Below are positions 16,485 to 32,666 of a stretch of 64,000 nt of DNA, one piece after another. Numbering within the stretch: position 1 is the first letter of the stretch; the number at the start of each line of letters is the position of its first letter. The notes under the pieces are model-generated. The model was not told the DNA's origin. It did no database searches and saw only the letters and a list, made by a program, of their open reading frames with translations. The DNA comes from Streptosporangium sp. NBC_01495 (lineage in GTDB: Bacteria; Actinomycetota; Actinomycetes; Streptosporangiales; Streptosporangiaceae), in contig NZ_CP109430.1 of the NCBI RefSeq assembly GCF_036250735.1, positions 7,502,001 through 7,566,000 on the forward strand. Reading direction: 5' to 3'. The translations under genes were made by a program, and so were the position numbers.

Positions 16485-16769
16485 CGTTAGCTCACCACTC
16501 AATGCGTCGTGTGTTCGTCAAAGCCATGTCCGTGACGACAGGGAGCCAACCTATCCCGGACGTCATGTCCCGGTGGCGAGGCCTCGGGAACGCCTCGGGG
16601 CGCGGTCTCCCGAGGTCCGGCCGCGAGATCGGTGGATCATTTATCCGCAGGTGACGCACGGGCCGTCCGCTCCCGTCCGCCGGTCGGCGGTGGCGGGTTC
16701 TGTCGGTGGTGCCGTGCAGTATGGGCGGTGACCCGGTTGGTCGGCCGGACCGGGAGTCAGGGGGCGACG

Positions 16770-19700
16770 ATGAGTGAGACGACGGGCGCGGGCGGAGCGC
16801 TCGACCACTTCACCCGGATGACCAGAGACTGGTTCACCGGGGCGTTCGCCGCGCCGACGGCCGCGCAGGAGGGGGCGTGGGCGGCGATCGCCCGGGGTGA
16901 CAACACCCTGGTGGTCGCGCCCACCGGCTCCGGCAAGACGCTCGCCGCCTTCCTGTGGTCGCTTGACCGGCTCGCCTCCTCCGCTCCCGGCTCCCCCTCA
17001 GGCGCCGGAGGCGCCATCGCGAGCGCGGACACCCCGGCGGGCGGCGCCGTCACGGGCGTCCCGGGCACCCGCGCGGGCTCGACGGACGGCGGGAGTTCGG
17101 CGGATACGGACACGGCGGGCGGTGCGGGCACCCGAGGCGGGCGGAGGCGTTCGCGGGGGGACGGCGAGCCGGTGAGGCGGTGCCGGGTCCTGTACGTGTC
17201 GCCGCTCAAGGCCCTGGCGGTCGACGTCGAGCGCAACCTCCGGGCGCCGCTGGCCGGGCTGGGGCAGACCGCGCGGCGGCTCGGTCTCCCGGTGCCGGAC
17301 ATCTCGGTGGCGATCCGGTCCGGCGACACCTCCCCCGAGGAGCGGCGCCGGTTCGCGACCAGGCCGTCCGACATCCTGATCACCACCCCCGAGTCGCTGT
17401 TCCTGCTGCTCACCAGCCAGGCCCGCGAGGCGTTGCGCGGCGTGGAGACGGTCATCGTCGACGAGGTGCACGCGGTGGCGGCCACCAAGCGCGGCGCGCA
17501 CCTGGCCCTCAGCCTGGAGCGGCTCGACACCCTCCTGCCCCGGCCCGCCCAGCGGATCGGCCTGTCGGCGACCGTGCGGCCGGTGAGCGAGGTGGCCGCC
17601 TTCCTGGGCGGGGCGCGCCCGGCGACCGTGGTCCAGCCGCCTTCCGACAAGGAGATCGAGGTCGAGGTGGTCGTCCCGATCGAGGACATGACCGAGCTCG
17701 ACACGCCTCCCGCCTCCCCCGCCCCCGACGACGACCGCTGGCTGACCGAGACCCCGGCCAGGCGGTCGATCTGGCCGCATGTGGAGGAGCGACTGTTCGA
17801 GCTGATCCGGAGCCACAATTCCACGATCGTGTTCGCCAACTCCCGGCGGCTGGCCGAGAGGCTGTGCACCCGCCTCAACGAGCTGGCGTGGGAGCGGCGG
17901 GAGGACGGCGGGGAACGCGCCGGGGAGAGCGCGGAGGCGGATCCGGTGCACTGGGCCGAGGGGTTCCCCGGGCCGCCGGCCTCCGTCTCCACCCCGGCGG
18001 CGATGATGGCGCAGGCCGGCGCGGCCAAGGGGGTCGTCCCGGAGATCGTGAGGGCCCACCACGGTTCGGTGTCGAAGGAGGAGCGCTCCCAGATCGAGGA
18101 GGCGCTCAAGTCCGGGCGGCTGCCCGCCGTGGTCGCGACCTCCAGCCTGGAACTCGGCATCGACATGGGCGCGGTCGACCTGGTGGCCTGCGTCGGGGCG
18201 CCGCCGAGCGTGGCGAGCGGCCTGCAGCGGATCGGCCGGGCCGGGCACCAGGTGGGGGCCGTCTCGCGCGGCGTGATCTTCCCCAAGTACCGGGGGGACC
18301 TGGTCCAGACGGCCGTGGTGGCCGAGCGGATGAGAAGCGGGGAGATCGAGGACCTGCGTTACCCGCGCAACCCTCTCGACGTGCTCGCCCAGCAGATCGT
18401 GGCGATGACCGCGCTGGACGAGTGGACGGTCGACGAGCTGGAGGAGGTCGTGCGGCGAGCCGCCCCCTACCGGACGTTGCCCAGGAGCGCGCTGGAGGCG
18501 ACGCTCGACATGCTCGCCGGGCGCTACCCGAGCGAGGAGTTCGCCGAGTTGCGGCCGCGCATCGTCTGGGACCGGGTGACCGGCACCCTGCGGGGCCGTC
18601 CCGGGGCCCAGCGGCTGGCGGTCACCAACGGCGGCACGATTCCCGACCGGGGGCTGTTCGGCGTGTTCCTGGTCGGGGAGAAGTCCTCCCGGGTGGGTGA
18701 GCTGGACGAGGAGATGGTCTACGAGTCGCGGGCCGGGGACGTGTTCGTGCTGGGCGCGACCTCCTGGCGGATCGAGGAGATCACGGCCGATCGGGTGCTG
18801 GTCACACCGGCCCCCGGCCAGCCGGGAAAGCTCCCGTTCTGGCACGGCGACACCGCCGGGCGGCCGGCGGAGCTGGGGAGGGCCATCGGCGCGTTCCTCC
18901 GCGAGATGTCGGCGGCGGGCGCGGACGCCGAGGCGGGAGGCGGGGGCACCCGAGGCGCGAGGACGGGTGAGGCGAAAGCGGGAGTCACGGGAGCGGGACG
19001 CGGAGAAGCCGGGAACCCGGGGACGGGAAACGGGGAAGCGGGGAACACGAAGGCGGGACGCGGAGAAGCGGGACACGGGGAAGCGGGAGCGGGGAACGCG
19101 GCGCGGGAGGTCGCCCTGAAGCGGATCAGGGCGGCGGGGCTGGACGAGTTCGCCGCCGCCAACCTGCTCTCCTACCTGGCGGAGCAGCGGCAGGCGACCG
19201 GTTACGTGCCGGACGACAGGACGTTGCTGGTCGAGCGCTTCCACGACGAGCTGGGCGACTGGCGGGTGGTGGTGCACTCCCCGTACGGGGCGCGGGTGCA
19301 CGCGCCGTGGGCGCTGGCGATCGGGCGGCGGCTGCGGGAGCGCTACGGCGTCGATGTGCAGGCCGTGCACTCCGACGACGGGATCGTGCTGCGTATCCCC
19401 GACACGCTCTCCGACCCCCCGTCCGATGTCGCGGTCTTCGACGCGGACGAGATCGAGCGGATCGTCACCGAGGAGCTGGGCGGCTCGGCGCTGTTCGCGG
19501 CGCGGTTCCGCGAGTGCGCGGGGCGGTCCCTGCTGCTGCCGCGCCGCGTGCCGGGCAGGCGGTCGCCGCTCTGGCAGCAGCGGCAGCGCGCCTCCCACCT
19601 GCTGAACGTGGCGGGCCGCTACGGGTCGTTCCCCGTGGTGCTGGAGACGATGCGCGAGTGTCTCCAGGACGTGTTCGACGTGCCGGGGCTGGTCCGGCTG

Positions 19701-21776
19701 ATGCGCGACATCGAGGCACGGCGGGTCCGGCTGGTGGAGGTCGAGACCGACAAGGCGTCGCCGTTCGCGGCGTCGCTGCTGTTCAACTACATCGGCGCGT
19801 TCATGTACGAGGGGGACGCCCCGCTGGCCGAGCGCCGTGCCCAGGCCCTCGCGCTCGACACGAGCCTGCTGGCCGAGTTGCTGGGCCAGGCGGACCTGCG
19901 CGAGCTGCTCGACCTCGACGTGATCACCGACACCGAGCGGGAGCTGGCCCGGCTCGACCGGCCGCTGCGCGACGCCGAGGACCTGGCCGACCTGCTCCGC
20001 TCCCACGGCCCCCTGGTGGCCGAGGACGTCGGCGTGCGCGAGGGCGACCCGGCGTGGCTGACCGCGCTGGAGGGCTCCCGGCGGGCCATCAGGGTGCGGG
20101 TGGCGGGGCAGGAGCGGTGGGCGGCGATCGAGGACGCCGCCCGGCTGCGCGACGCGCTCGGCGTGCCGCTGCCCGTGGGGGTGCCGCACGCGTTCCTGGA
20201 GCCGGTCGACGACCCGCTGGGCGACCTGCTGGCCCGGCACGCCCGTACGCGCACCCCCTTCCTCGCGAGCACCGCCGCGGCCAGGTTCGGCCTCGGCCCC
20301 GCGGTCGTCACCGACGCGCTGCGCCGCCTGGCCGTCTCCGGGCGGGTGGTGAGCGGGGAGTTCAGGCCGGGTGGCCGGGGCGAGGAGTGGTGCGACGCGG
20401 GAGTGCTGCGGATGCTGCGCCGCAGGTCCCTGGCCAGGCTCCGCAAGGAGGTGGAGCCGGTCTCCCCGGAGACCCTGGCCGCCTTCGCGCCCGCCTGGCA
20501 CGGCGTCACCGGCTCCCCGCAGCGGGGCAGGCCGCCGATCGACGCGCTGGTGGGCGCGATCGAGCAGTTGCAGGGCGCGGCGGTGCCCGCGTCGGCGCTG
20601 GAGACGCTCATCCTGCCCTCGCGGGTGCCCGGATACGACCCGTCTTTCCTGGACGAGCTGACGGCCTCCGGCGAGGTGATCTGGATGGGTCAGGGGTCCC
20701 TGCCGGGCGGCGACGGCTGGGTGTCGCTCTACTTCGCCGACACCGCGCCGCTGCTGATGCCCGACCCCGGCGACATCACCCTGACGCCGGTGCACGAGGC
20801 GGTGCTGGAGGTTCTGAGCGGCGGGGGCGCGCTGTTCTTCCGCGAGCTGGGCGGCCGGGTCGGCGCCCTCCTGGCCGGTTCCGTCCCGGACGACCGTGCC
20901 CTGTCCGCCGCCGTGTGGGATCTGGTGTGGTCGGGCCGGATCACCGGTGACACGCTGGCGCCGCTGCGCGCCGTCCTCGGGACGGGGCGCCCCGCGCACC
21001 GCCCGGCCCCGACCCGGCGACGGCGGGCGGTGCTGCCGACCAGGAGCGGCCCGCCCACCGTGGGCGGGCGCTGGTGGGCGCTGCCCGCCCTCGCGGAGGA
21101 CACCACCCAGCGCGCCCGCGCCCAGGCCGAGGTGCTGCTGGAGCGGCACGGCGTGGTGACCAGGGGCGCGGTGACCGCCGAGCGGCCGCCGGGCGGGTTC
21201 GCCGCCGTCTACCAGGTGCTCCGTGCCTTCGAGGAGAGCGGCCGGTGCCGCAGGGGCTACTTCGTGGAAGGGCTGGGCGGCGCCCAGTTCGCCCTCCCCG
21301 GCGCCGTCGATCGGATGCGCGCCACGTCCCCCTCGCCCGCCCAGCCGGACACGGTCCCGGAGCCCGACCCGTGGAGCACGCGGAAGCCGGAGCGGCCGGA
21401 GGGAAACACCCGGCGGGCGGTGGTGCTGGCCGCCGCCGACCCGGCCAATCCGTACGGGGCGGCCCTGCCGTGGCCCGCCCACCCCGGGGAGGTGTCCCAC
21501 AAGCCCGGCAGGAAGGCCGGATCCCTGGTCGTGCTCGTCGACGGGCACCTGGTCCTCTACGTCGAGCGCGGCGGCAGGACCCTGCTGTCCTTCTCCGGCG
21601 ACGACCGCCTCCAGCCCGCCGTCGACGCCCTCGCGCTCGCCGTGCGCGACGGCGCCCTGGGCAAGCTGACCGTCGAGCGGGCGGACGGCACCGCGATCAA
21701 CGACTCCCCTCTGGGCGCCGCCCTGGAGTCCGCCGGGTTCCACCCGACCCCGAGAGGGCTGCGCCTGCGGGCCTAG
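16770..21776 (+). CDS. lhr: Lhr-type DEAD/DEAH helicase
   Basis: A 1668-residue large helicase-related protein, an ATP-dependent 3'-5' helicase with roles in DNA repair. The motor domains show APTGSGKT (Walker A), VIVDEVHAV (DEVH box), GLSATVRP (motif III), GIDMGAVDLV and RIGRAGHQ (motif VI), followed by the winged-helix and Lhr core and the long C-terminal extension of the long Lhr form. Two low-complexity insertions are present: one just after Walker A (residues ~75-125, Ala/Gly/Thr) and one around residues 725-775 with repeated GEAG/GNGEAG units. The ATG has a CAGGGGG ribosome site; a longer frame lacks support. It stands alone. Confidence 0.95.
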   Translation: MSETTGAGGALDHFTRMTRDWFTGAFAAPTAAQEGAWAAIARGDNTLVVAPTGSGKTLAAFLWSLDRLASSAPGSPSGAGGAIASADTPAGGAVTGVPGTRAGSTDGGSSADTDTAGGAGTRGGRRRSRGDGEPVRRCRVLYVSPLKALAVDVERNLRAPLAGLGQTARRLGLPVPDISVAIRSGDTSPEERRRFATRPSDILITTPESLFLLLTSQAREALRGVETVIVDEVHAVAATKRGAHLALSLERLDTLLPRPAQRIGLSATVRPVSEVAAFLGGARPATVVQPPSDKEIEVEVVVPIEDMTELDTPPASPAPDDDRWLTETPARRSIWPHVEERLFELIRSHNSTIVFANSRRLAERLCTRLNELAWERREDGGERAGESAEADPVHWAEGFPGPPASVSTPAAMMAQAGAAKGVVPEIVRAHHGSVSKEERSQIEEALKSGRLPAVVATSSLELGIDMGAVDLVACVGAPPSVASGLQRIGRAGHQVGAVSRGVIFPKYRGDLVQTAVVAERMRSGEIEDLRYPRNPLDVLAQQIVAMTALDEWTVDELEEVVRRAAPYRTLPRSALEATLDMLAGRYPSEEFAELRPRIVWDRVTGTLRGRPGAQRLAVTNGGTIPDRGLFGVFLVGEKSSRVGELDEEMVYESRAGDVFVLGATSWRIEEITADRVLVTPAPGQPGKLPFWHGDTAGRPAELGRAIGAFLREMSAAGADAEAGGGGTRGARTGEAKAGVTGAGRGEAGNPGTGNGEAGNTKAGRGEAGHGEAGAGNAAREVALKRIRAAGLDEFAAANLLSYLAEQRQATGYVPDDRTLLVERFHDELGDWRVVVHSPYGARVHAPWALAIGRRLRERYGVDVQAVHSDDGIVLRIPDTLSDPPSDVAVFDADEIERIVTEELGGSALFAARFRECAGRSLLLPRRVPGRRSPLWQQRQRASHLLNVAGRYGSFPVVLETMRECLQDVFDVPGLVRLMRDIEARRVRLVEVETDKASPFAASLLFNYIGAFMYEGDAPLAERRAQALALDTSLLAELLGQADLRELLDLDVITDTERELARLDRPLRDAEDLADLLRSHGPLVAEDVGVREGDPAWLTALEGSRRAIRVRVAGQERWAAIEDAARLRDALGVPLPVGVPHAFLEPVDDPLGDLLARHARTRTPFLASTAAARFGLGPAVVTDALRRLAVSGRVVSGEFRPGGRGEEWCDAGVLRMLRRRSLARLRKEVEPVSPETLAAFAPAWHGVTGSPQRGRPPIDALVGAIEQLQGAAVPASALETLILPSRVPGYDPSFLDELTASGEVIWMGQGSLPGGDGWVSLYFADTAPLLMPDPGDITLTPVHEAVLEVLSGGGALFFRELGGRVGALLAGSVPDDRALSAAVWDLVWSGRITGDTLAPLRAVLGTGRPAHRPAPTRRRRAVLPTRSGPPTVGGRWWALPALAEDTTQRARAQAEVLLERHGVVTRGAVTAERPPGGFAAVYQVLRAFEESGRCRRGYFVEGLGGAQFALPGAVDRMRATSPSPAQPDTVPEPDPWSTRKPERPEGNTRRAVVLAAADPANPYGAALPWPAHPGEVSHKPGRKAGSLVVLVDGHLVLYVERGGRTLLSFSGDDRLQPAVDALALAVRDGALGKLTVERADGTAINDSPLGAALESAGFHPTPRGLRLRA

Positions 21777-22334: not shown

Positions 22335-22718
22335 ATGGGTGAAAACATCGCAGCCGATGTGCCGCACAGGCAGGCGCGAATTCTAATGGCGGGTGCCGTC
22401 AGCGGCGCATTGCTGCTGGCCGCGTCTCTCACCGTCGTTCTGACCGGAATTTCTGAACCGGAATCCCCTCGACTACCTCCGAGGTTTCCGTCTCTCCCGA
22501 CCGGGCTGCCGAGCGGTTTCCCCACGGATTTCCCGTCAGGATTCCCGACGAGCCTGCCCTCGGACTTTCCCACAGACTTTCTGACGAACTTCCCCACGAA
22601 CTTCCCGAAAGACTTCCCGACGAGCCTGCCCTCGGGCCTCCCCACAGACTTCCCGACGAGCCTGCCGTCGCTCCCTGACCTGCCGGTCCCGAAACCCGTC
22701 CCGGAGGACGTCCCATGA
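22335..22718 (+). CDS. Membrane-anchored proline-rich repeat protein
   Basis: A 127-residue protein with one transmembrane segment near the N terminus (ILMAGAVSGALLLAASLTVVLTG, residues ~16-38). After it come about 80 residues made of LPSGFPTDFP-like units, in which Pro recurs every four residues. Hydrophobic, polar and Asp/Lys residues alternate in that stretch, which would form an extended rod on the outer face of the membrane. No known domain is recognised. Its stop codon overlaps the start of the next gene (ATGA), tying it to the operon. The start is not certain: an internal ATG at 22386 is the alternative. The repeats also exist at DNA level (GACTTCCCGACGAGCCTGCC-type units). Confidence 0.65.
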   Translation: MGENIAADVPHRQARILMAGAVSGALLLAASLTVVLTGISEPESPRLPPRFPSLPTGLPSGFPTDFPSGFPTSLPSDFPTDFLTNFPTNFPKDFPTSLPSGLPTDFPTSLPSLPDLPVPKPVPEDVP

Positions 22719-24217
22719 CCGATGCACCGGCGACCGGCGAACCGGCATCAGCGACTGTTTCCCGCCCCCTGTCCGATGACGAGGTGGCCAGAGCCCGCAC
22801 GATCCTGATCGCCCGGGTGCTCATCGGGGCCTACCTGGCGTACGTGCTTCTTGACCTGTTCCGGCCACGTACGGTGCCGAACGAGCCAACGCTGACGATC
22901 TTCTGGCCGCAGCCCCCGTTGCCGGGCATGCTCGGCCGGATGCTCTCCATGTCGCCGGCAGTCTTCTGGACCGTCCTGGCAGGCATCGTGGCGGGCGTGG
23001 TACTGCAGTTTCCGGCCACGACCGCCAGGTTCGCGGAAGGTCGCCGGGCCACCGTCCTGACGTGGGTGACCCTGGCGGTCATGCTCGGGCCGTTCGCCCT
23101 GATTCCCCTGACGGTCATCGGCTCCTCCCCACTGGCCGCTCTCGCCTGTGTCCCCGGCAGCGCCTTCGTCCTGTGGCTGCTCTATCTCTTCCACTGGTTT
23201 CCCCGGTTGCCCATCCGCATGCTGCTGGCCGCGTTCGGCTGGGGGGCGCTGATCATGTTCGGCCTTGGCCGCGCTTACAACAGCCTGGCGGTCGGCACCA
23301 TCATCGGATTCACGACCGGGACACAGGCGCCCGGCCTCGGCGGGCTGACAGGGGCGTTGTACCGGATGCTCTCTTTTTTCGTGTTGCATATGAAGATCGT
23401 GAGCCAGCTGGCTGCGGCGGCCGGTGTGATCCTGTTGCTGCTCTGGTACCGGCACCGCGTCACCGACGCTATGACCGGTTTGGTGCTCGGGGCGGCGGTC
23501 GGACTCGGATACGCCTTCACAGAAAGCGTGGGGTTCATCCAACTCGCCGATCTGCTGGGGGGGATCACCGGCGTGACCGGTGGCTTCGAGTACTGGATCC
23601 GGCAGTCAATTGGTCTGGTCGGCGGGCCTGTGACGTTCGGAGCCCTGCTCGGGGCCGGGCTGGGGCTGGCCGCGCAGGCACGTCGGCGCGGGCAACGCGT
23701 GCTCATAGCGGGGGCGGGCCTGCTGGCCGCGGCCGGTGGCGCCGTGGGCACCGAACTGCTGTCCCCCTGGCTCTTCAAGCTCGCCGCACCTCATATCGAG
23801 GTCGGCGGACCGGCCGACACACTACTCGTCTCGCCGTTCCTCTGGCTGCTCGTGCAGCTGCCGTTCATCGTGCTCGCCCTGATGTTGTTGCGGAACGGGG
23901 CGTGTGCGAGGGCAGCGGCCGCGCGAGCCGCCGTACCGGAGGCGGTGGGTGAGGCCATCACCGAGCGGGAGGTGCCGTTCCTGGTCGACCCGGCGCTTCG
24001 CCTGTGGGCCGTGGCGAGCACCTGGCGCCGGCACGGCGGGCACGCGGCGCTCGCCCTGAGCCGCCTGCAGTCCGCTCAGCTGGACCTGGCCGCCTGGCGT
24101 TGGTGGCAAGGTGCCCGTTCCGACCCGAATCAGGCCCAGAAGGAAGGCGAGAAGTTGCATGCCAGGGTGATCCTGCTGAAGTCGCCGAGCGGCGCCGTCC
24201 CGGAGACGACCCCATGA
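22715..24217 (+). CDS. PrsW-like polytopic membrane protein, catalytic motifs incomplete
   Basis: A 500-residue protein with about nine or ten membrane helices and a soluble C-terminal tail of ~100 residues. The segment VGLGYAFTESVGFIQL matches the second PrsW motif (FA.tEN..Y) in position and form, and GGPVTFGALLGAGLG lies where the third motif (H......G...G) is expected. However, the EE..K motif of the first conserved helix is not visible, and the third motif lacks His. It is therefore either a diverged PrsW-type intramembrane protease or a non-catalytic relative. A GGAGG ribosome site precedes the ATG. It overlaps the previous gene and the next one by four bases each. Family assignment is tentative. 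Confidence 0.6.
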   Translation: MTDAPATGEPASATVSRPLSDDEVARARTILIARVLIGAYLAYVLLDLFRPRTVPNEPTLTIFWPQPPLPGMLGRMLSMSPAVFWTVLAGIVAGVVLQFPATTARFAEGRRATVLTWVTLAVMLGPFALIPLTVIGSSPLAALACVPGSAFVLWLLYLFHWFPRLPIRMLLAAFGWGALIMFGLGRAYNSLAVGTIIGFTTGTQAPGLGGLTGALYRMLSFFVLHMKIVSQLAAAAGVILLLLWYRHRVTDAMTGLVLGAAVGLGYAFTESVGFIQLADLLGGITGVTGGFEYWIRQSIGLVGGPVTFGALLGAGLGLAAQARRRGQRVLIAGAGLLAAAGGAVGTELLSPWLFKLAAPHIEVGGPADTLLVSPFLWLLVQLPFIVLALMLLRNGACARAAAARAAVPEAVGEAITEREVPFLVDPALRLWAVASTWRRHGGHAALALSRLQSAQLDLAAWRWWQGARSDPNQAQKEGEKLHARVILLKSPSGAVPETTP

Positions 24218-24630
24218 GGGGCCGCGGGTTCGGCGTCGTGCCGGTACGCACAGTCCGTGTCGCTCTCGGCGCGCTGCTCCTCGCGTGCCTCATGTTGCCG
24301 CTGGCCCCACAGCAGGCCCTGGCCTGCGGCGTCAGCTACGGGCACATGCCTTCCTTCCGGTTCGACCTGCCCCGTCTCGGGCTCGACAGGCGGTGTTCGA
24401 ACGCGGCGTCGCTCACGGGCGCCGGCATCGTCGCCATGTTGACGATCTCCGGTGTGGTCATCGTCGGCGCCCGTGCCTTCAGACGCGGCGAGGCGGTCGC
24501 ACGAAAAACCCTCTCGAGATGGGGCGAACCTGCGGAGGTCCTGTCGGATTACCTGACCGTGACGGGGTCGGTGAAATCCGGCCCCGAGCCGGGACCTGCG
24601 GAGGGTGAGGATGCGCGCACCGGTCCATGA
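24214..24630 (+). CDS. Small exported membrane protein, unknown function
   Basis: A 138-residue protein that starts inside the stop codon of the PrsW-like gene. It has an N-terminal signal sequence (VALGALLLACLMLPLAPQQALA), a short extracytoplasmic part with two Cys residues (ACGVSYG and RRCSNA), then a membrane helix (LTGAGIVAMLTISGVVIVGARAF) and a basic cytoplasmic tail ending in a Pro/Gly/Glu-rich stretch. The two cysteines could form a disulfide outside the cell. Its 3' end overlaps the start of the next gene by 20 bases. I do not recognise a family. Its role is presumably tied to the large exported protein that follows. Confidence 0.65.
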   Translation: MRGRGFGVVPVRTVRVALGALLLACLMLPLAPQQALACGVSYGHMPSFRFDLPRLGLDRRCSNAASLTGAGIVAMLTISGVVIVGARAFRRGEAVARKTLSRWGEPAEVLSDYLTVTGSVKSGPEPGPAEGEDARTGP

Positions 24631-26908
24631 GCCGCGAGGGGAGAAGGAGGCCCCGGCGGACCGGGCCAATCGTGACGCACGCTCCCACCGGTGGCGGCAC
24701 CTCGCCATCCTCATCATCATGGTGGTCGGCGTCACCTCGCTCTCAGTACCGGGAACGCTGGCGGCGCCGACGCCGCCGGGCACCGGGGCACCGATGGCCC
24801 CGGGGCCCTCGCCCACCGTCTCGGGCCGCTTCACCGTCCTGCTGCCGCCCGGGACCACGGCCGAAGACGATCAAGCTGCCGAGAAGGCCGCCAGGGAACT
24901 GCTCGAGAACCCGGCGGGACGGGAACTCGTCAAAGCCGACAGAGAGTTCGTCAAACCCACCAAGCCACAGCTTCCTGGATCGGTGGGAAACGTCTCGGTC
25001 GAGTGGTTCGATCTGGGCTGGATGAAACACGCGGACGATCTCCCCGACTGGCTGAAGCCCGAAGACCTGCTCACCCGCCTCCTGGAGGCCAGAGAGACCC
25101 CGGCGGACACCGACAGGTATAAGACCGCGACGAAAATCGTAAAGCACGAAGGAAACCAAGAGCTTCACCAGCAGATCGGCGCGACACCGAGCAGCCTGTT
25201 GTTACAGGTATCCACCAGCAGTGAGTACCGGACCAGACACTCCGAGATCATCCCCCTCGACTGGCTTGGGTATGTGGTTCCTCTCATCCTTCAGCGGATG
25301 GCCAAGGCAGGCGACGTATACATCGCCAGCAAGAAGGCGGGCAGCCTGAGCGAAAGGATTCTGCGGGAATCGCCTCTCTATATCGCGAGCCAGCGGACGC
25401 CCTGCCTCGATGCGTGCGATGAGGAAACCGAAGCATTTCCCCACGGTCTGGCGATCGCCTATTACGGCACGAACAACAGTGAGCACGCGCAACGCGCCAA
25501 GCTGCTCGTACCGAAGGTCATGCAGAAGGCGGAGGCGGCACTACGCAGGCAGGAAAGCGATCAGGCGTGGCGGCGACGCCAGGCGAATCTCGGATTCTGT
25601 GACGGGGTCGGCGCGCCGCCCGGCCATCGCGAGGCCGGCAGAGGAAAGGTCCTTGCGATGGCGGCGCCCCTTCCGGCCACGCCGTGCGCCGGAGGCGAGC
25701 CGGGCGGGGTCACCGGGGCGTTGTTGGCGGACGACTACGGCGGTGTCGACTTCTCCACCCTGGAACTGCGCTACATGTCCGATCGCCCCCACTCCGGTGA
25801 TGTGCGGTACTCCTTCTCCGCGCGCCCCGCGGCCCCGGGCCTCCGCCAGAGCCCGGAGTCCCGCCTGCAGGCGGCCACGGACGCGACCGCGGACCTCCGG
25901 ACCTGGCTGGTGCTGAACCCGAACCTGTTCTGGGTGAACCTCCATCCGACGCAGCCCGACCGCATCATCGACCCGGAGCTGGGGCGAACGAAAGCCGGCC
26001 GGGCGATGCTTGAGGCGGACCTGCAGATGAAGCGCACCGAAGGGAAGCTGCTGAACCCGAACAGCAAATTCGGGGCGAAGTACTGGAAGGCCGCGCTGAG
26101 CCGCGGTGTGGACAGGGCGTGTTTCTCCGCCCGGATGTGGATCGTCCCCGGCCGGGTTGAGGTACACGAGGACGAGGATTCGCTCTACGTCCTGAAAGCC
26201 CCTCTTGCCGTGAAACTGAAGGCCGAAGACATCGGCGGCTCTTACTCGTGCCCGTCCCCGAACCAGGCAGCCGACGCCCGCAACGAGGAACTCCACCGGT
26301 CGACAGTGCTGCCGAAGATCGTGAAAGCGGTCAACACCGCGCCGGAGTACGCCCCGCTGCGCCGGGCGTTCACGGCCCGGGTGATCGCACAGTGGATCCG
26401 CGAACGACACCGGAAGGGCCACCGAACATCGTTCGACCGGCTGATCGACTCGGGGAACATCGGCGGCGCGAAACTTACGGACGATTGGAGGCCTCGGCAG
26501 GTGTTCGACGCCTACCTCCGCTCGATCAGAGACGGTGAGTTCTCCGTCAAGCGGACCGTCCGCAAGAAAGGAGCCGTCTTCATCTATCAGATGAGGTTCG
26601 GGGGCGTCGACTTCAGCGACGTGCCCATGACCGCCGTCGGCGTCGCCGAGATGGGCCGGCGGCACCCGCGACTGACGCAGACCGTGGAGGCCTCGGTAAA
26701 ACACCCGGAAAAGGGCATGGACGGTTCCACCTGGCTCGGAGAGGCCGGCGGGCCGCCACCCCCCGGTCCGTGGCTCCGGATCACCGATGGGATAGGCGGT
26801 CTTGTGGAAGGCCGCGTCGGCGTCCTGGCCCTGATCCTTGTCGCGCTCGGAGCGATCGTCTTCGGCTTCCGCGGCGGGTCCGCTCGCAGGCGACGGCCGA
26901 CACCGTGA
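24611..26908 (+). CDS. Large exported protein with C-terminal anchor, unknown conserved domain
   Basis: A 765-residue protein from the ATG at 24611 (GGAGG seven bases upstream). A signal or anchor helix is at HLAILIIMVVGVTSLSVPG, followed by a Pro-rich linker, a large extracytoplasmic region and a C-terminal membrane helix (GVLALILVALGAIVFGF) before a basic tail. The centre (about residues 435-680) has a distinctive series of blocks: LFWVNLHPTQPDRII, LGRTKAGRAMLEADLQMK, the WIVPGRVEV strand and GGVDFSD near the end. I associate this series with an uncharacterised domain of large secreted proteins in other phyla (from memory, not checked). Cys residues are few. No catalytic motif is evident. 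It closes the four-gene operon. Confidence 0.7.
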   Translation: MRAPVHEPRGEKEAPADRANRDARSHRWRHLAILIIMVVGVTSLSVPGTLAAPTPPGTGAPMAPGPSPTVSGRFTVLLPPGTTAEDDQAAEKAARELLENPAGRELVKADREFVKPTKPQLPGSVGNVSVEWFDLGWMKHADDLPDWLKPEDLLTRLLEARETPADTDRYKTATKIVKHEGNQELHQQIGATPSSLLLQVSTSSEYRTRHSEIIPLDWLGYVVPLILQRMAKAGDVYIASKKAGSLSERILRESPLYIASQRTPCLDACDEETEAFPHGLAIAYYGTNNSEHAQRAKLLVPKVMQKAEAALRRQESDQAWRRRQANLGFCDGVGAPPGHREAGRGKVLAMAAPLPATPCAGGEPGGVTGALLADDYGGVDFSTLELRYMSDRPHSGDVRYSFSARPAAPGLRQSPESRLQAATDATADLRTWLVLNPNLFWVNLHPTQPDRIIDPELGRTKAGRAMLEADLQMKRTEGKLLNPNSKFGAKYWKAALSRGVDRACFSARMWIVPGRVEVHEDEDSLYVLKAPLAVKLKAEDIGGSYSCPSPNQAADARNEELHRSTVLPKIVKAVNTAPEYAPLRRAFTARVIAQWIRERHRKGHRTSFDRLIDSGNIGGAKLTDDWRPRQVFDAYLRSIRDGEFSVKRTVRKKGAVFIYQMRFGGVDFSDVPMTAVGVAEMGRRHPRLTQTVEASVKHPEKGMDGSTWLGEAGGPPPPGPWLRITDGIGGLVEGRVGVLALILVALGAIVFGFRGGSARRRRPTP

Positions 26909-27008: not shown

Positions 27009-30000
27009 TCAGCCCCCGACGGGGACCGCCTCACCTCGTTCCTCGCGCTCCCGCTCCTGGCGCCGCTGGATGGTCTGGAAGCCGACCAGGTCGTCCGGGA
27101 GCGCGTCGGGGACGTCCACGTCGAACCTGGACAGCGTGCGGGTCCGCATCGCGACCAGCGCCGTGACCGCGATGGCGACGGCGAACAGCACGTACATCAG
27201 GCCGACGCCCCGGCCCTCTCCGGTGCCGAGCACGAGGCCGACCGTGTCGGCCAGCGGCCCCCCCGGAACCAGCAGCGGTTCGAACAGCGTGCTGCCGTAC
27301 GGGGCGACCAGGCCGAAGCCGATCGGCAGGGTGGACCAGGCGATGAGCGTGTTGAGCGCGATGACGCGGCCGTGGAAGCGTTGCGGCACCTTGACCTGGA
27401 TGATCGTCGCGTAGACGCCGTTGAGCATGGTCAGCCAGAACGACATCCCGAAGGCGCCGACCGCGATCAGGACCAGGTTCTGCTGCAGGCCGGTGACCAG
27501 GCAGAAGAGACCCAGCACGAGGGTGGAGAGCATCACGCCGCGCAGCCGCCGCCGTCGCGGGCCTCCCCAGACGGTCATGGTCAGGCCGCCGAGGAATACC
27601 CCGAGGCCGCCGAAGAAGGAGATCCGGCCGACGTCCTCCAGGGTGGCGAAGCCCAGGACCAGCGGCGAGATGAGCAGGAACAGCGGGGACAGGAAGATGT
27701 TCAGCACCGCGAAGAAGAACAGCATGCCGCGGAAGCCCCGGTTGCCCCAGGAGAACTTCCAGCCCTCGACCATCTCGGCGACCAGCGACTCCCTGCGCTT
27801 CCACGCCATGGTCTTCGGGAAGCGGACGAAGATCAGCACCCCGATCGCGAAGACGTACGAGACGACGTCCAGGACGAGGATGCCCTCCAGCCCGATCACG
27901 GTCATCAGGCCGACCGCGACCAGCGGGACGACCAGCTGGGCGGTACCGGTCACCATCTGGACCACGCCGTTGGCGTGGCCGAGGAAGCGCTTGGGGACCA
28001 GCTGCGGGATGGCGGAGTTGTAGGCGAGGCGCTGGAAGGTGAGCGCGACCGACAGCAGCACCAGGAGTGGGTAGATGTGCCAGATCTGCAGGTTGCCGGT
28101 CCACAGCAGGACGCCCAGTGCCAGCTGGGTGCCGAAAGCGCCGACGTCTCCGGCGAGCATGACCTTGCGCCGGTCGTAGCGGTCGACGAGGGCACCGGCC
28201 AGCGGGGACACCAGCATGCCGGGGACCAGCGCGAGGACGGCGAACAGGGCCATCATGGGGAGCGAGCCGGTGGTGATGTAGATCCACAGCGGGATGGCGA
28301 ACTCGGTCAGCGACGACCCGACGATCGAGATGAGCTGTCCGGCCGCCACGGCGGCGAACCGCTTCATGCTCGGCGGAGGGCCGGAGCGCGCCGGGGGATC
28401 CGTCGCGACCGGGCGTCCCGTCTCCGGTGGCGCGCCACCCGTGCCCGAACCGACGAGGGTGGGGGCCGGTCCCGCGCCGGTGACCGCGGGTGTCATCGTC
28501 GCCGGGAGGATCTCCGCGGCGGCGTCCTGGGTGGAGACGCCGCCGAGCCACCAGGTCGATCGGTCGGTACGGGCCAGCTTGGCCGTGTCGCCGGAGGCGA
28601 TGGCCCGGTGGGTGCCGGTGACGATGGTGGCGAGCTCTTCCGCCCGATATTTCAGGAAAAAGTGACCGGCCTCGTCGAGGACGACCACGGCCGTGGAGCC
28701 GGTCAGGAGATGCCACTCGCGGTAGCGCTCCTGGTAGAACTCGGTGGCCGGGTCCCGGTCGCCCGCCACGGAGATGATCGGTGCCCTGAGCGGCTCGACG
28801 CCCTCCTCGAAGAGGCGGGTGAAGTAGCGTTCCGCCTCCTTGGTGCCCTTGCGACGGTTGTCGATCATCAGCTTGAGCTGGTCGCGTTCCAGGTCCTCCA
28901 CGTCGAGACCCGCGGCCTGCAGGGCGTTGGCCCAGACCTGGTCGCTGCGCAGGCGGTCGGTCAGGTTCGACAGCTTGGCCAGCACCGAGGTGGGACGCGC
29001 GAAGGGGAAGATGCCGCCGAGGTAGATCGCCTCGACCGGGCGGCCCGCGGCCTCCAGGCGGCGGGCGATCTCCACGGTCAGCATGACGCCGAGCCCGCAG
29101 TGCCCGTACAGCGCGAGCGGGCCGCGAATGTCCTTGAGGATCTCCTCCACGCAGCCCTGCGCGACCTCCGCCACCGGCCGGGTCTCCTCGATCAGCCCCA
29201 TCTCCTGGCCGGGGACGGCGACCGCGTGCAGCGCCCAGTTCTGGGGCAGTGTGTCGGCCAGCGGCTGGTAGATGGCCGCGCTGCCGCCGCCGTACGGCAC
29301 GCAGACCAGGGTCGAGGTGGCCGTGCGGGCCGGGGTGAGCCGGTGCAGGAGCATGCGCGGGCCGTCGTCGGCCGTCTCGACGAGCCGCGCGAGCTCGCGG
29401 ACGGTCCGGTTCTTGAACAGGTCCAGGATGGTGACCTGGCGCCCGCCTTCAGGAATGGCTTTCCGAAGGCGGGCGACCACCTGCGCGGCGAGCAGCGAAT
29501 GACCGCCCAGGTCGAAGAAGTCGTCCAGCACGCCGACCTGGACCAGTCCGAGCACCTTCGCCCACACCGCCGCGATCGCCTCTTCGAGAGGCGTCTCCGG
29601 CGGGACGAATCCGGCTTCCTGGTCGGGTCGTGCCTCGTCGGGCTCGGGCAGCCTGGCCCGGTCGACCTTGCCGTGCGACTTCAGGGGCAGCTCGTCCAGC
29701 CAGACGAACCGCCCGGGGATCATGTACTCGGGGAGCCGTTCACCGAGCCGCGCCCGCAGCTCACTGACGCTGACCCGCTCTCCGCCGACCTCGCCGACCA
29801 CGTACGCGACCAGCCGGTCCCCGCGCAGGTCGACGACGGCGTGGGCGACTCCCGGCTGGCCGGCGAGCACCGACTCGATCTCCGGCAGCTCCACCCGGTA
29901 GCCCCTGACCTTGACCTGCAGGTCGCGGCGGCCGAGAAAGCACAGGTCGCCGGAGGGCAGCCACCGGCCGAGGTCACCGGTCCGGTACATGCGGGCGCCG

Positions 30001-32666
30001 GGCCCGCCGTACGGGTCGGGCAGGAATCTCTCGGCCGTCAGGCCGGGCCGCCCGAGGTATCCGCGGGCGAGACGGTCGCCGCCGAGGTAGATCTCGCCGG
30101 TCATGCCGGGCGGGACCAGCCGCAGGTGCTCGTCGAGCACGTAGACCCCGGCGCCGGGCAGCGGCCTGCCGATCGGCAGGTTCAGCGCCCGCTCGCGCTC
30201 GCCGGTGACGGCGTGGGTGGAGATGCCGACCGTGGCCTCGGTGGGGCCGTAGTGGTTGACCACCGTGGTGTGCGCGGTCAGCTCGCGGGCCCAGCTCCAC
30301 CTGGACGCCTCGCCGCCGAGGACGAGGAGCTTGCGCGGGAGCAGTTCGGCGGGATCGTCCACCGCGGCGAGCAGCGAGGCGAGGTGGGAGGGGGTCATCT
30401 TCAGGTAGTCGGTGCCGCTCAGCAGCCCGGCGAGCTCCTCGGCGGGGGCCTGGGGATCGGCCAGGTGCAGCTCTCCGCCGGTCATGAGCGACAGGTAGAA
30501 GATCGTCACCCCGAAGTCGAACGAGAGCGACTGCAGCAGCGTGTAGACCGCGCCGGGTTCGACCTCGAAGCGCTCCCTGACCCCGGCGAGGTAGTTGAGC
30601 ACCTGCCGGTGCTGCACCCCGACGCCCTTCGGCCGTCCGGTGGTCCCCGAGGTGTAGATCACGTACGCGAGGTCGCCGGGCGAGACCTCGGGGGGCTCGA
30701 ACCCGGTCTCGTCCAGCGCCTCGGAGTCCAGGCAGATCACCGGCGCCCCGGGAAGGTCGGGAAGCAGGTCGCGCAGCGCGGAGGTGGTGAGGACGGCGAC
30801 GGCCCCGGCGTCGGCGAGCATGTACGCCAGCCGGTCGCGGGGCTGCTTGGGGTCGAGGGGCACGTAGGCGCCACCGGCCTTCAGCACGCCGACGACGGCC
30901 GCCGCCAGGTCGGTGGACTGTTCGAGGAAGACGCCCACCCTGGTGTCGGGGCCCACGCCGTGCCGGTTCCTCAGCAGGGCGGCGATCCTGGTGGAGCGCT
31001 CGTCGAGCTCGGCGTACGTCAGCGAGCCGCCGCCGGCCGCGGACGCCGTACCCGGACCCGAGCCGCCACGCGCCCCGGACGCCGTACCCGAACCGCCGCT
31101 CACCGCGGACGCCTTCCGCGGACCGGAGCCGCCACGCGTCGCGGGCGCCGTCCCCGAGGCGGGCGAGCCCTCGTGGACCACGGCCGTCGCGCCGGGGGTG
31201 AGCGCGGCCTGCGCGGTGACGAGGTCGTGCAGCAGGTCGTGGCCGGAGGGCCGCAGGGCGGGTCCCGAGCCGAAGCCCAGGACCAGGTCGCGCTCGTCGT
31301 CGGAGAGCAGCGACAGCTCACCCACCCGCGTGTCCGGGTCCGCCACGATCGAGCGCAGCAGCGTCTCGAAGCGCGCCGCCAGCAGCTCCACGGTCTCCGG
31401 GTCGAACAGGGCGGTGCTGTGGGCGAGGTGGCCGACCAGCCCGCCGTCCGGGCTCTCGAACAGGTAGAGGCCGAGGTCGAAGCGGGTGGTCCTGGCCGGG
31501 AGCGTGAGGTAGGAGACGCGCCCGTCCTCCTCGCCCGCCTTGAAGTTCTGCAGCGCGAACGTGACCTGCGCGAGCGGCGACCGGCTCACGTCGCGGACCA
31601 CGTTCAGCTCGTTGACCAGCTGGTCGAACGGGAGCTCCTGGTGCGCGTAGGCGTCCAGCGCGGCCTCGCGCGTCCGGGCCAGGAAGGTGGTGAACGACGG
31701 GTCGTCGGCGAGGTCGGCGCGCAGGACCAGGGTGTTGACGAACATGCCGACGACCCCGTCCAGCTCGGGCAGCCCGCGCCCGGCGACCGGGGAGCCGACC
31801 GCGAAGTCAGTCTGCCCCGAGTAGCGGGCCAGCAGCACCTGGAAGGCCGCCAGCAGCGTCATGTACGGCGTGGCACCGGCCGCGGCGCCCAGCTCGGCGA
31901 GCCGCCGGGCGAGGTCGGCGTCCACCCTGACGTCGAGGGCGGCTCCCTCGTGGCGCTGCTCGGCGGGGCGCGGCCTGTCGGTGGGCAGCTCGATGGCGGG
32001 CAGCCCGGCGAGCCGGTCGCGCCAGTGGTCGATCTCGCGGCGGTGGTCGCGGCCCCGCTGCCAGAGGGCGTAGTCGCCGTAGCCGACCGGCGCGGGCGGC
32101 GGGGTCCCGCCGTCGTGCAGGGCGAGCAGCTCGCGGATGAGCAGGTCGCTGGACCAGCCGTCGATGACGGTGTGGTGGGCGGCGATGAGGAGGACGTGGT
32201 CGTCGGGCGCGATCCTGACCAGCACGGCGCGGAAGAGCGGGCCGTGCTCCAGGTCGAACGGGACGGCGAGGTCGGCGTCGAGCAGCTCGATCGCGGCGTC
32301 CACGCCGTCCGCCTCGGCGACGCGCAGCGCGGCGGGCCCCGGCTCGTCGATGACCAGCTCGGGGGTGCCGTCGTCGGTGGTGAGGAACCGCGTCCGCAGG
32401 GCCTCGTGGCGTGCGACGATCTCGTCCAGCGCCCGGCGCAGCGCGTCGGCGTCCAGGTCCCCGCGCAGGCGCACCGCGACGGGGACGGTGTAGGTGGTGG
32501 TGCCCGGCCGGTACTGCTCGAGGAACCACAGGCGTTCCTGGGCGTGGGACAGGGGTGGGACGGTTCCCGGGGCGCGGCGGACGACGGCGGCCCGCGACTC
32601 CCCCCGGCTCTTGAGCCGCTTGGCGAGCAGCGCCTTCTTGGCGTCCGACAGCGTTGTCTCGGTCAC
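27009..32666 (-). CDS. NRPS C-A-PCP-TE module fused to an MFS exporter
   Basis: An 1885-residue terminal synthetase. The C domain has HHTVIDG (164-170). The A domain (about 530-1010) has A3 YTSGTTGRPKG. The pocket residues I extract by eye are D-F-T-K-V-G-H-V-G-K, nearest to Asp codes. The PCP attachment site is Ser1057 (LGGHSL). The thioesterase domain (about 1120-1370) has the elbow YGHCGLG, putting Cys1190 where Ser is usual, with Asp in AGDRDP and His in EAGHFF. After a ~60-residue Pro/Ala linker an MFS domain with about 12 helices (1434-1850) follows, with DRYDRRKVM in the 2-3 loop. A Gly/Ser repeat insertion precedes A3. Its GTG overlaps the E2 stop codon. It is the last gene of the leftward operon. 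Confidence 0.93.
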   Translation of the reverse strand: MTETTLSDAKKALLAKRLKSRGESRAAVVRRAPGTVPPLSHAQERLWFLEQYRPGTTTYTVPVAVRLRGDLDADALRRALDEIVARHEALRTRFLTTDDGTPELVIDEPGPAALRVAEADGVDAAIELLDADLAVPFDLEHGPLFRAVLVRIAPDDHVLLIAAHHTVIDGWSSDLLIRELLALHDGGTPPPAPVGYGDYALWQRGRDHRREIDHWRDRLAGLPAIELPTDRPRPAEQRHEGAALDVRVDADLARRLAELGAAAGATPYMTLLAAFQVLLARYSGQTDFAVGSPVAGRGLPELDGVVGMFVNTLVLRADLADDPSFTTFLARTREAALDAYAHQELPFDQLVNELNVVRDVSRSPLAQVTFALQNFKAGEEDGRVSYLTLPARTTRFDLGLYLFESPDGGLVGHLAHSTALFDPETVELLAARFETLLRSIVADPDTRVGELSLLSDDERDLVLGFGSGPALRPSGHDLLHDLVTAQAALTPGATAVVHEGSPASGTAPATRGGSGPRKASAVSGGSGTASGARGGSGPGTASAAGGGSLTYAELDERSTRIAALLRNRHGVGPDTRVGVFLEQSTDLAAAVVGVLKAGGAYVPLDPKQPRDRLAYMLADAGAVAVLTTSALRDLLPDLPGAPVICLDSEALDETGFEPPEVSPGDLAYVIYTSGTTGRPKGVGVQHRQVLNYLAGVRERFEVEPGAVYTLLQSLSFDFGVTIFYLSLMTGGELHLADPQAPAEELAGLLSGTDYLKMTPSHLASLLAAVDDPAELLPRKLLVLGGEASRWSWARELTAHTTVVNHYGPTEATVGISTHAVTGERERALNLPIGRPLPGAGVYVLDEHLRLVPPGMTGEIYLGGDRLARGYLGRPGLTAERFLPDPYGGPGARMYRTGDLGRWLPSGDLCFLGRRDLQVKVRGYRVELPEIESVLAGQPGVAHAVVDLRGDRLVAYVVGEVGGERVSVSELRARLGERLPEYMIPGRFVWLDELPLKSHGKVDRARLPEPDEARPDQEAGFVPPETPLEEAIAAVWAKVLGLVQVGVLDDFFDLGGHSLLAAQVVARLRKAIPEGGRQVTILDLFKNRTVRELARLVETADDGPRMLLHRLTPARTATSTLVCVPYGGGSAAIYQPLADTLPQNWALHAVAVPGQEMGLIEETRPVAEVAQGCVEEILKDIRGPLALYGHCGLGVMLTVEIARRLEAAGRPVEAIYLGGIFPFARPTSVLAKLSNLTDRLRSDQVWANALQAAGLDVEDLERDQLKLMIDNRRKGTKEAERYFTRLFEEGVEPLRAPIISVAGDRDPATEFYQERYREWHLLTGSTAVVVLDEAGHFFLKYRAEELATIVTGTHRAIASGDTAKLARTDRSTWWLGGVSTQDAAAEILPATMTPAVTGAGPAPTLVGSGTGGAPPETGRPVATDPPARSGPPPSMKRFAAVAAGQLISIVGSSLTEFAIPLWIYITTGSLPMMALFAVLALVPGMLVSPLAGALVDRYDRRKVMLAGDVGAFGTQLALGVLLWTGNLQIWHIYPLLVLLSVALTFQRLAYNSAIPQLVPKRFLGHANGVVQMVTGTAQLVVPLVAVGLMTVIGLEGILVLDVVSYVFAIGVLIFVRFPKTMAWKRRESLVAEMVEGWKFSWGNRGFRGMLFFFAVLNIFLSPLFLLISPLVLGFATLEDVGRISFFGGLGVFLGGLTMTVWGGPRRRRLRGVMLSTLVLGLFCLVTGLQQNLVLIAVGAFGMSFWLTMLNGVYATIIQVKVPQRFHGRVIALNTLIAWSTLPIGFGLVAPYGSTLFEPLLVPGGPLADTVGLVLGTGEGRGVGLMYVLFAVAIAVTALVAMRTRTLSRFDVDVPDALPDDLVGFQTIQRRQEREREERGEAVPVGG

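What the first reader, a model, noticed from the sequence alone, without database searches (positions are those of the whole stretch)
22335..26908. Four-gene operon for an uncharacterised cell-surface system
Four coupled or overlapping genes encode an exported rod-like Pro-repeat protein, a PrsW-like polytopic protein, a small two-Cys membrane protein and a ~765-residue protein anchored at both ends. All products are membrane or exported proteins, no known enzyme domain is found, and a long regulated-looking leader precedes them. The central blocks of the large protein (WVNL.P...DRII, then G.T..GR.ML..DL.MK, WIVP..V.V, GGV.FSD) recall an unnamed domain of giant secreted proteins in Omnitrophota and Chlamydiae-like bacteria. 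That link is from memory only. A domain of this kind in an actinomycete, in an operon with a PrsW-like protein, is a good candidate for an undescribed surface or signalling system.
Basis: partly seen in the sequence, partly recalled or inferred. Interest (0 to 1): 0.75.

Follow-up and report, generated by a model that had tools for sequence, protein, structure and literature searches.

The report
Surface-tethered deaminase with PrsW-like operon
A soil actinomycete carries a four-gene set that seems to display on its surface a predicted deaminating enzyme, built on a scaffold that in related bacteria carries a predicted DNA-cutting enzyme instead, which looks like an undescribed kind of bacterial weapon.

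Summary
The four genes are real, coupled and conserved together: B, C and D in 14 further loci, A in 13 of these. A sister clade has an A-B-C set by its D in 7 more loci (A seen in 6, C in 7). The large protein D is not featureless. In 15 operon D proteins only five head positions are kept in 14 or more; four of them, H212, E214, C267 and C271, form a zinc-deaminase signature. Cytidine-deaminase structures lead the fold list, at modest scores, and relatives weakly match Pfam XOO_2897-like deaminase. The C-terminal domain of D has no significant Pfam or NCBIfam match; elsewhere in Actinomycetota it carries a PD-(D/E)XK nuclease-like head, often beside a putative immunity gene (26 of 40; 0 of 41 for deaminase heads). 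D is best read as an exported, C-terminally tethered, toxin-like protein with a variable N-terminal head, the reverse of classical polymorphic toxins. The PrsW-like B lacks catalytic residues in 15 of 15 operon copies. Activity, toxicity, delivery and self-protection are inferred. The Omnitrophota link could not be tested.

The parts
22335..22718 (+). Gene A: hydrophobic helix (residues ~16-34), then a Pro-rich xPT/xPS tail, probably facing outwards
   Evidence: Pfam PT repeat 9.8e-9; hydropathy; A-like ORF upstream of B in 13 of 14 operon loci
22715..24217 (+). Gene B: polytopic PrsW-family protein, predicted catalytically dead (motif-1 Glu and Lys, motif-3 His and motif-4 His absent; motif-2 Glu270 kept)
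   Evidence: Pfam PF13367 1.8e-14; residue counts; hydropathy
24214..24630 (+). Gene C: small protein with signal-like segment, short two-Cys stretch, membrane helix and tail
   Evidence: C-like ORF directly after B also in 7 of 7 sister-clade loci
24605..26908 (+). Gene D: 767 aa (GTG start) or 765 aa (ATG 24611): signal-like N-terminus, variable head, conserved C-terminal domain, C-terminal helix
24812..25579 (+). D residues ~70-325: deaminase-like head; H212 (25238-25240), E214 (25244-25246), C267 (25403-25405), C271 (25415-25417)
25697..26749 (+). D residues ~365-715: conserved C-terminal domain (GGVDFS, FWVNLxP, T.AGR.(M/L)L motifs) with two invariant Cys (C506, C549 in alignment A1)
   Evidence: no PDB sequence relative at E up to 5
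26816..26872 (+). C-terminal membrane helix of D (residues 738-756), followed by an Arg-rich tail

Best explanation
The operon builds a surface-displayed, toxin-like enzyme. D is exported by Sec, its deaminase-fold head and conserved C-terminal domain end up outside the membrane, and the C-terminal helix tethers it. The head is the exchangeable business end of a family whose other main head is a PD-(D/E)XK nuclease. A (Pro-rich rod), B (dead PrsW relative) and C (small membrane protein with a probable disulphide) form an envelope module that, among the loci seen, goes only with deaminase-headed D: B would descend from a protease that cut the tether, and in this clade would hold, fold or position D without cutting it. 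The head would deaminate bases in nucleic acids or nucleotides of a competing cell that it reaches. Shown by sequence: gene linkage, variable head on constant base, conserved zinc-site signature, loss of catalytic residues in B. Supported but modest: the deaminase fold. Inferred: topology, complex formation, enzyme activity, substrate, delivery, antagonistic role.
For: In 15 D proteins chosen by their neighbours, not by motif, only five of head positions 60-339 are kept in 14 or more: L187, H212 (14; the other has Asp), E214 (15), C267 (15), C271 (15). In 37 deaminase-type D proteins E, C and C are invariant and H and S are at least 90% (rows chosen mostly by an H-E pattern, so only the Cys are a free result). 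VIA ranks 1-9 and 11-13 for the D model are cytidine-deaminase-superfamily chains (best 4ld2_A, Z 4.8, rmsd 3.9, 113 aligned). Pfam XOO_2897-deam matches 7 of 37 (best 2.2e-5). Profile against profile: operon heads with sister-clade heads 98.7%, with other deaminase-type heads 94.9%, HSE on HSE and PC..C on PC..C; with nuclease-type heads 0.6%. The head is less alike than the base in 105 of 105 pairs (median identity 20.7% against 56.4%). Nuclease type: most of the top 29 VIA rows for the L084 model are PD-(D/E)XK nucleases, among them CdiA-CT 4g6u (Z 6.1, rmsd 3.6, 113 aligned) and the effector TseT 7dym (Z 5.8, rmsd 4.0, 102 aligned). A putative immunity gene stands by 26 of 40 nuclease-type and 0 of 41 deaminase-type D (Fisher p 2e-11), with three copies in tandem in L072. 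PrsW-family genes stand by 20 of 41 deaminase-type and none of the nuclease-type D loci. Exchange: L032, nuclease-type by motif, lies inside the operon clade. Accessory: the D family is in 2 of 16 genomes of the genus, the window's own included, and absent from the same lhr-NRPS site in G196 and G071.
Against: The window D itself matches no Pfam family. The deaminase Pfam scores I saw (15.7, 24.6, 24.9 bits) are under the cut-off of 27 (one search gives no scores). The fold match is weak: no Foldseek E under 0.001, no Z of 5 or more, an unrelated chain at rank 10 with Z 4.5, and six of the twelve deaminase rows are one protein, yeast cytosine deaminase. P266 is not conserved, Cys spacing varies, and one of 15 has Asp for His. 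No recurrent immunity gene was found by deaminase-type D. Linkage is not complete: in the operon clade L033 and L035 have no B or C in the stretch held, and L032 starts at a contig end; 21 of 41 deaminase-type loci showed no PrsW neighbour. No toxicity, secretion or cleavage was measured. An N-terminal head on a C-terminal tether is the reverse of known polymorphic toxins, so delivery is unexplained.
Confidence: 0.52

Rival explanations
1. A surface barrier or scavenging system rather than a weapon: tethered deaminases and nucleases modify or destroy extracellular nucleic acid (environmental DNA, incoming phage or plasmid DNA) at the cell envelope.
For: Both heads are of kinds that act on nucleic acids or their parts, and both are predicted to face outwards on a membrane helix or LAxTG-type anchor. 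The operon is accessory. No immunity gene was found by deaminase-type D.
Against: Nuclease-type D often has an adjacent gene family without an export signal (by eye), in tandem copies in L072, as expected of cytosolic immunity. No PADLOC model matched B or D at E up to 1. Heads diverge fast.
Confidence: 0.2
2. A metabolic enzyme: the head deaminates free bases or nucleosides outside the cell for salvage.
For: The nearest solved folds include cytosine, guanine and dCMP deaminases.
Against: Patchy distribution (4 of 396 genomes of the phylum sample, own included), head exchange with a nuclease type, Pfam similarity of relatives to a toxin-type deaminase family.
Confidence: 0.1
3. A regulated-proteolysis signalling system: the PrsW family member senses or cuts, D is a structural surface protein, and the deaminase fold is vestigial or binds a ligand.
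For: Some PrsW proteins act in signalling (PMC3482391, passage). Sister-clade B keeps most catalytic residues.
Against: Operon B has lost motif-1 Glu and Lys and motif-4 His in 15 of 15 and motif-3 His in 14 of 15, while the zinc-site residues are the best kept part of the D head, the opposite of a vestigial enzyme. No regulator family recurs in the operon loci among the largest neighbour clusters listed.
Confidence: 0.1
4. The four genes are neighbours by chance, or the deaminase signature is coincidental.
For: Weak fold scores and sub-threshold Pfam matches.
Against: Linkage and exactly the zinc residues are conserved across several actinomycete families.
Confidence: 0.04

Closest known systems
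Polymorphic toxin systems (Zhang et al. 2012, PMC3482391; abstract and found passages seen)
   Same: Constant region joined to exchangeable nuclease or deaminase domains; adjacent immunity-like gene for the nuclease type; PrsW family involved; XOO_2897 deaminases listed there as toxins
   Different: The head is N-terminal and the constant part C-terminal and anchored; the PrsW relative is a separate gene and, in the operon clade, lacks catalytic residues; no immunity gene found for the deaminase type
XOO_2897-like deaminases (PF14440), cytidine-deaminase superfamily
   Same: HxE and paired-Cys motif; some relatives match the Pfam model at about 2e-5
   Different: The window D itself has no Pfam match; its Cys pair is spaced C-x3-C; the Pfam scores seen are under the cut-off
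PrsW glutamic-type intramembrane protease (PF13367 / NF033739)
   Same: Pfam score above cut-off
   Different: NCBIfam equivalog 13.4 bits against a cut-off of 225; catalytic residues missing in the operon copies
LAxTG sortase-anchored Streptomyces surface proteins (NF041528)
   Same: Several nuclease-type D proteins end in an LAxTG-type motif, a helix and an Arg tail; L084 scores 24.8 bits on NF041528, cut-off 30
   Different: The window D ends in a membrane helix without such a motif

Membership tests
Polymorphic toxin system | Constant region with variable toxin region | tested here: met
   Head median identity 20.7% against 56.4% for the base, lower in 105 of 105 pairs; head type changes on the tree of the base
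Polymorphic toxin system | Toxin domain at the C-terminus | tested here: not met
   The head is N-terminal in D and its aligned relatives
Polymorphic toxin system | Immunity gene beside the toxin gene | tested here: inconclusive
   For the deaminase type 0 of 41 have the one family found, and no other recurrent neighbour but A, B, C was seen; any of these might protect. Nuclease type 26 of 40
Polymorphic toxin system | Inhibits other cells | not testable with these tools
   needs an experiment
[quoted passage not shown]
   Separate gene
PrsW protease | Sequence family | tested here: met
   PF13367 54.2 bits against 23.5
PrsW protease | Catalytic residues (motif-1 EExxK, motif-2 E, motif-3 H, motif-4 H; read from 27 ordinary homologues) | tested here: not met
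   Operon B: motif-1 second E 0 of 15, K 0 of 15, motif-3 H 1 of 15, motif-4 H 0 of 15; motif-2 E 14 of 15
Cytidine-deaminase superfamily | HxE and paired-Cys zinc motif | tested here: met
   H 14, E 15, C 15, C 15 of 15 operon D proteins
Cytidine-deaminase superfamily | Deaminase fold | tested here: inconclusive
   12 of the top 13 VIA rows are deaminases, but Z is at most 4.8 and the margin over an unrelated row is 0.3; no Foldseek E under 0.001
XOO_2897-like deaminase (PF14440) | Profile match | tested here: inconclusive
   None for the window protein; 7 of 37 aligned members, scores seen under the cut-off
Domain of Omnitrophota/Chlamydiae giant proteins | Sequence relationship of the C-terminal domain | not testable with these tools
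   No search of those phyla was possible

The most novel reading that the evidence does not exclude
A so far undescribed class of surface weapon in Actinomycetota with reversed architecture: an exchangeable N-terminal nucleic-acid-attacking head (deaminase or nuclease) on a constant C-terminal domain tethered to the attacker, the deaminase heads served by a module of Pro-rich rod, PrsW relative and small two-Cys membrane protein in which the protease became a pseudo-protease, turning a released weapon into a contact-dependent one.
Probability: 0.3. Interest if true: 0.82.

Novelty: new variant of a known kind. Interest (0 to 1): 0.63.

Why it matters
If right, it adds a family in which toxin heads sit on the opposite end of the protein from known polymorphic toxins, present in many genera of Actinomycetota, and a natural set of deaminase domains that might serve as base-modifying tools. 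It also offers a clear case of a protease family turned pseudo-protease inside a conserved operon, with a sister clade that keeps most of the active site for comparison.

Tried and rejected
Led nowhere: Rfam on leader and operon (two matches far under the gathering score); sigma-70 scan (no promoter-like site, 5 terminator-like sites against 2.5 in shuffles); PADLOC on B, D, L084 and two immunity-like proteins; PHROGs (only 0.2 for B); PDB by sequence for D (Filamin-B at 0.24) and for the C-terminal domain profile (none at E up to 5); the C-terminal domain in IMG/VR (24 pattern matches, no relative) and in plasmids at E up to 10 (six Streptomyces and one chance-level match). DUF1598 matched single members at 0.05-0.28; I treat that as chance.

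Considered and rejected: B as an active PrsW; D with two uncleaved membrane anchors and C as a lipoprotein (both by eye only).

Cautions on counts. Deaminase-type and nuclease-type labels came from regular expressions, so motif statistics on those sets are partly circular: for H and E, for D, E and K. One search uses the neighbour-defined set instead. A4 holds the window, L025 and 35 of the 37 loci labelled deaminase-type (L042 and L060 left out). A5 holds 31 of the 35 labelled nuclease-type (L032, L073, L075, L078 left out). L046 was labelled nuclease-type by pattern, but on reading shows neither motif clearly. Three rows were of no type (L047, L053, L091). Ordinary PrsW controls had to pass a pattern holding motifs 1 and 2, so only motifs 3 and 4 (27 of 27 His each) are free controls; L110 of 28 loci did not pass. 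In one search the rule missed five loci where the immunity-like gene overlaps an over-long D start or ORF (L015, L047, L069, L075, L094); I left the counts as computed. Rows dropped before the tree: L017, L018, L020 and L090 as duplicates, L083 as a fragment. L071 had one spurious row dropped from the immunity model. Of the six plasmid records, H3 was not fetched. Gene calls are ORFs with a simple codon-composition rule, not a trained gene finder.

Literature: seven searches answered. Only PMC3482391 held both PrsW and polymorphic toxin; I saw its abstract and found passages, not the whole text. The other papers I saw only as listings with abstract starts. That the architecture is undescribed rests on these searches of an open-access library.
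Full report
What is there. The window lies in an 11.1-Mb genome of the same genus group as G218, whose contig has the length and D locus of a Streptosporangium saharense contig. Between a gene that reads like the helicase lhr (16632-21776) and, on the other strand, one that reads like an NRPS joined to a transporter (27009-32666; both named by reading) stand four coupled genes, A to D. A has one hydrophobic helix and a Pro-rich xPT/xPS tail; B is polytopic and matches Pfam PrsW (E 1.8e-14); C has two hydrophobic segments around a two-Cys stretch; D has a signal-like N-terminus and a C-terminal helix with an Arg-rich tail.

Linkage. Homologues of B, C and D lie together in 14 distinct further loci: a Streptomyces plasmid (L012) and L022-L031, L034, L036 and L051, from Actinoallomurus, Streptosporangium, Actinomadura, Streptomyces and Streptacidiphilus. 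An A-like gene precedes B in 13 of the 14 (not found in L030). A sister clade has the same set, as A-B-C-D or D-A-B-C: PrsW and A-like genes in 6 of 6 loci and a C-like two-Cys membrane protein directly after B in 7 of 7, G286 included. A search of 394 genomes with B gave 37 matches, of which one besides the window was strong (G286, 1.3e-37; next 1.2e-10). A search of 396 with the D domain gave three besides the window, among them G286, on the same contig less than 1 kb from B. Linkage has gaps: L033 and L035, in the operon clade, have no B or C in the stretch held, L032 starts at a contig end, and 21 of 41 deaminase-type loci show no PrsW neighbour.

The head of D. The window D matches no Pfam family at E up to 1 and no PDB sequence better than 0.24. 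In 15 D proteins defined by their neighbours, of head positions 60-339 only L187, H212, E214, C267 and C271 are kept in 14 or more. H-x-E with a Cys pair is the deaminase signature; Zhang et al. give [HCD]xE and CxxC (passage), and the one exception to H212 is Asp. In a wider set of 37, E, C and C are invariant (H and E partly by selection). Pfam XOO_2897-like deaminase matches 7 of 37 (best 2.2e-5); the scores I saw are under the cut-off. Profile comparison joins operon heads to sister-clade heads (98.7%) and to other deaminase-type heads (94.9%) with the motifs in register, and not to nuclease-type heads (0.6%). The AlphaFold2 model (mean pLDDT 77.5) puts HSE between a strand and a helix and PC..C just after a strand, as I recall for deaminases. 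VIA ranks 1-9 and 11-13 are cytidine-deaminase-superfamily chains, six of them yeast cytosine deaminase; the best Z is 4.8 (rmsd 3.9, 113 aligned), an unrelated chain has 4.5 at rank 10, and Foldseek has nothing under 0.001. Taking motif, profile and fold together I hold a deaminase-like head for likely, about 0.85.

The base of D and its other heads. A scan of GTDB genomes found 169 stretches that encode relatives; 79 loci were kept, all Actinomycetota by their titles. The C-terminal domain is constant; heads differ. In 31 aligned proteins the head has G, D and K invariant and E and Q at least 90% (D, E and K partly by selection). The model of one of them (L084, mean pLDDT 78.8) has as most of its top 29 VIA rows PD-(D/E)XK nucleases: EndoMS (2vld_A, Z 7.4, rmsd 2.5, 95 aligned), Can2, Card1, restriction enzymes, the CDI toxin CdiA-CT (4g6u, Z 6.1, rmsd 3.6, 113 aligned) and the type VI effector TseT (7dym, Z 5.8, rmsd 4.0, 102 aligned). 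No Z reached 8. Many of these proteins end in LAxTG-type motifs. By 26 of 40 nuclease-type genes, and 0 of 41 deaminase-type, stands one small gene family without an export signal by eye (Fisher p 2e-11), in three tandem copies in L072, as expected of immunity genes; it gave no Pfam match above cut-off (DUF6278 at 0.001). A DUF6333-type family occurs in four other such loci, next to D in L014 and L016.

Exchange. On a tree of the base, L032, nuclease-type by motif and with a weak Ntox3 match (0.016), lies in a group with L026 and L034 (support 100) inside the operon clade. L051 has operon-type A, B and C but a D base from the sister clade. Across 105 pairs of operon D proteins the head is always less alike than the base (median 20.7% against 56.4%). 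This is a constant part with a fast-changing, exchangeable head.

B. Beside 27 ordinary PrsW homologues, operon B has lost the motif-1 second Glu (0 of 15) and Lys (0 of 15), motif-3 His (1 of 15) and motif-4 His (0 of 15), and keeps the motif-2 Glu (14 of 15). The sister clade keeps all of these except the first Glu of motif 1 (6 of 6). The control set had to hold motifs 1 and 2, so only motifs 3 and 4 are free controls. By sequence, B in the window is a pseudo-protease.

Distribution, the window's own genome counted each time. The D family is in 2 of 16 genomes of the genus, 4 of 396 of the phylum sample and 9 of 250 of the family sample, three of them marginal. The lhr-like gene is in 16 of 16. 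In G196 it is followed after about 440 bases by the NRPS region (87-93% identity) with no operon between, and in G071 after about 1.3 kb of other sequence; the other congeners showed no such junction in the 1.5 kb held. The operon is accessory.

Mechanism. Shown by sequence: linkage, exchange, motif conservation, loss of catalytic residues in B. Inferred: D is exported, displayed head-out and tethered; A, B and C make a module that handles deaminase-headed D; an ancestral PrsW cut the tether and the present B only holds or positions it; the head acts on nucleic acids or nucleotides of a competitor. The weapon reading rests mainly on relatives (nuclease heads with immunity-like neighbours, similarity to a toxin-type deaminase family). 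Against it: no immunity gene for the deaminase type and no known way in. Rivals are a surface nucleic-acid barrier, a salvage enzyme and a signalling system.

Comparison. Zhang et al. 2012 (abstract and passages) describe polymorphic toxins with C-terminal toxin domains and PrsW fused N-terminally. Here the polarity is reversed and PrsW is a separate gene, in this clade without its catalytic residues; so it may work like such a system but does not have its defining layout. The C-terminal domain has no significant Pfam match in the members scanned and none in NCBIfam for those given to it. The link to Omnitrophota or Chlamydiae could not be tested.

Noticed in passing
window 27009-32666 (-): A single 1885-aa frame that reads like NRPS condensation, adenylation, carrier and thioesterase stretches joined to an MFS-type transporter; named by reading only.
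   Followed up: no
L139 (G196), between the lhr-like gene and the NRPS region: Where the window has the operon, this congener has ~440 bases with a short ORF that looks like a peptide natural-product precursor; G071 (L142) has ~1.3 kb of other sequence there. The site may take different cargo.
   Followed up: partly
L072 1306-4583: Three tandem copies of the immunity-like gene upstream of a nuclease-type D in Mycobacterium colombiense.
   Followed up: partly
L063 5074-7794: A Nocardioides D relative continues past its membrane helix into a second hydrophobic segment, a further stretch and an A-like GLPTDFPT-rich tail: a possible D-A fusion.
   Followed up: partly
L032 49-2724: Nuclease-type head by motif (weak Ntox3 match) on an operon-clade base in Streptomyces sp. 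8L; the gene starts near the contig start, so A-C could not be looked for.
   Followed up: partly
L046 219-2465 and L053 5152-7287: D relatives whose heads show neither the deaminase nor a clear nuclease motif; possibly further head types.
   Followed up: partly
L014, L016, L088, L092: A DUF6333-type gene family occurs in four nuclease-type loci that lack the usual immunity-like neighbour; adjacency to D was seen for L014 and L016 only.
   Followed up: partly
L051 3655-8097: Streptacidiphilus operon with operon-type A, B and C but a D whose base falls in the sister clade: D replaced within an A-B-C set.
   Followed up: yes
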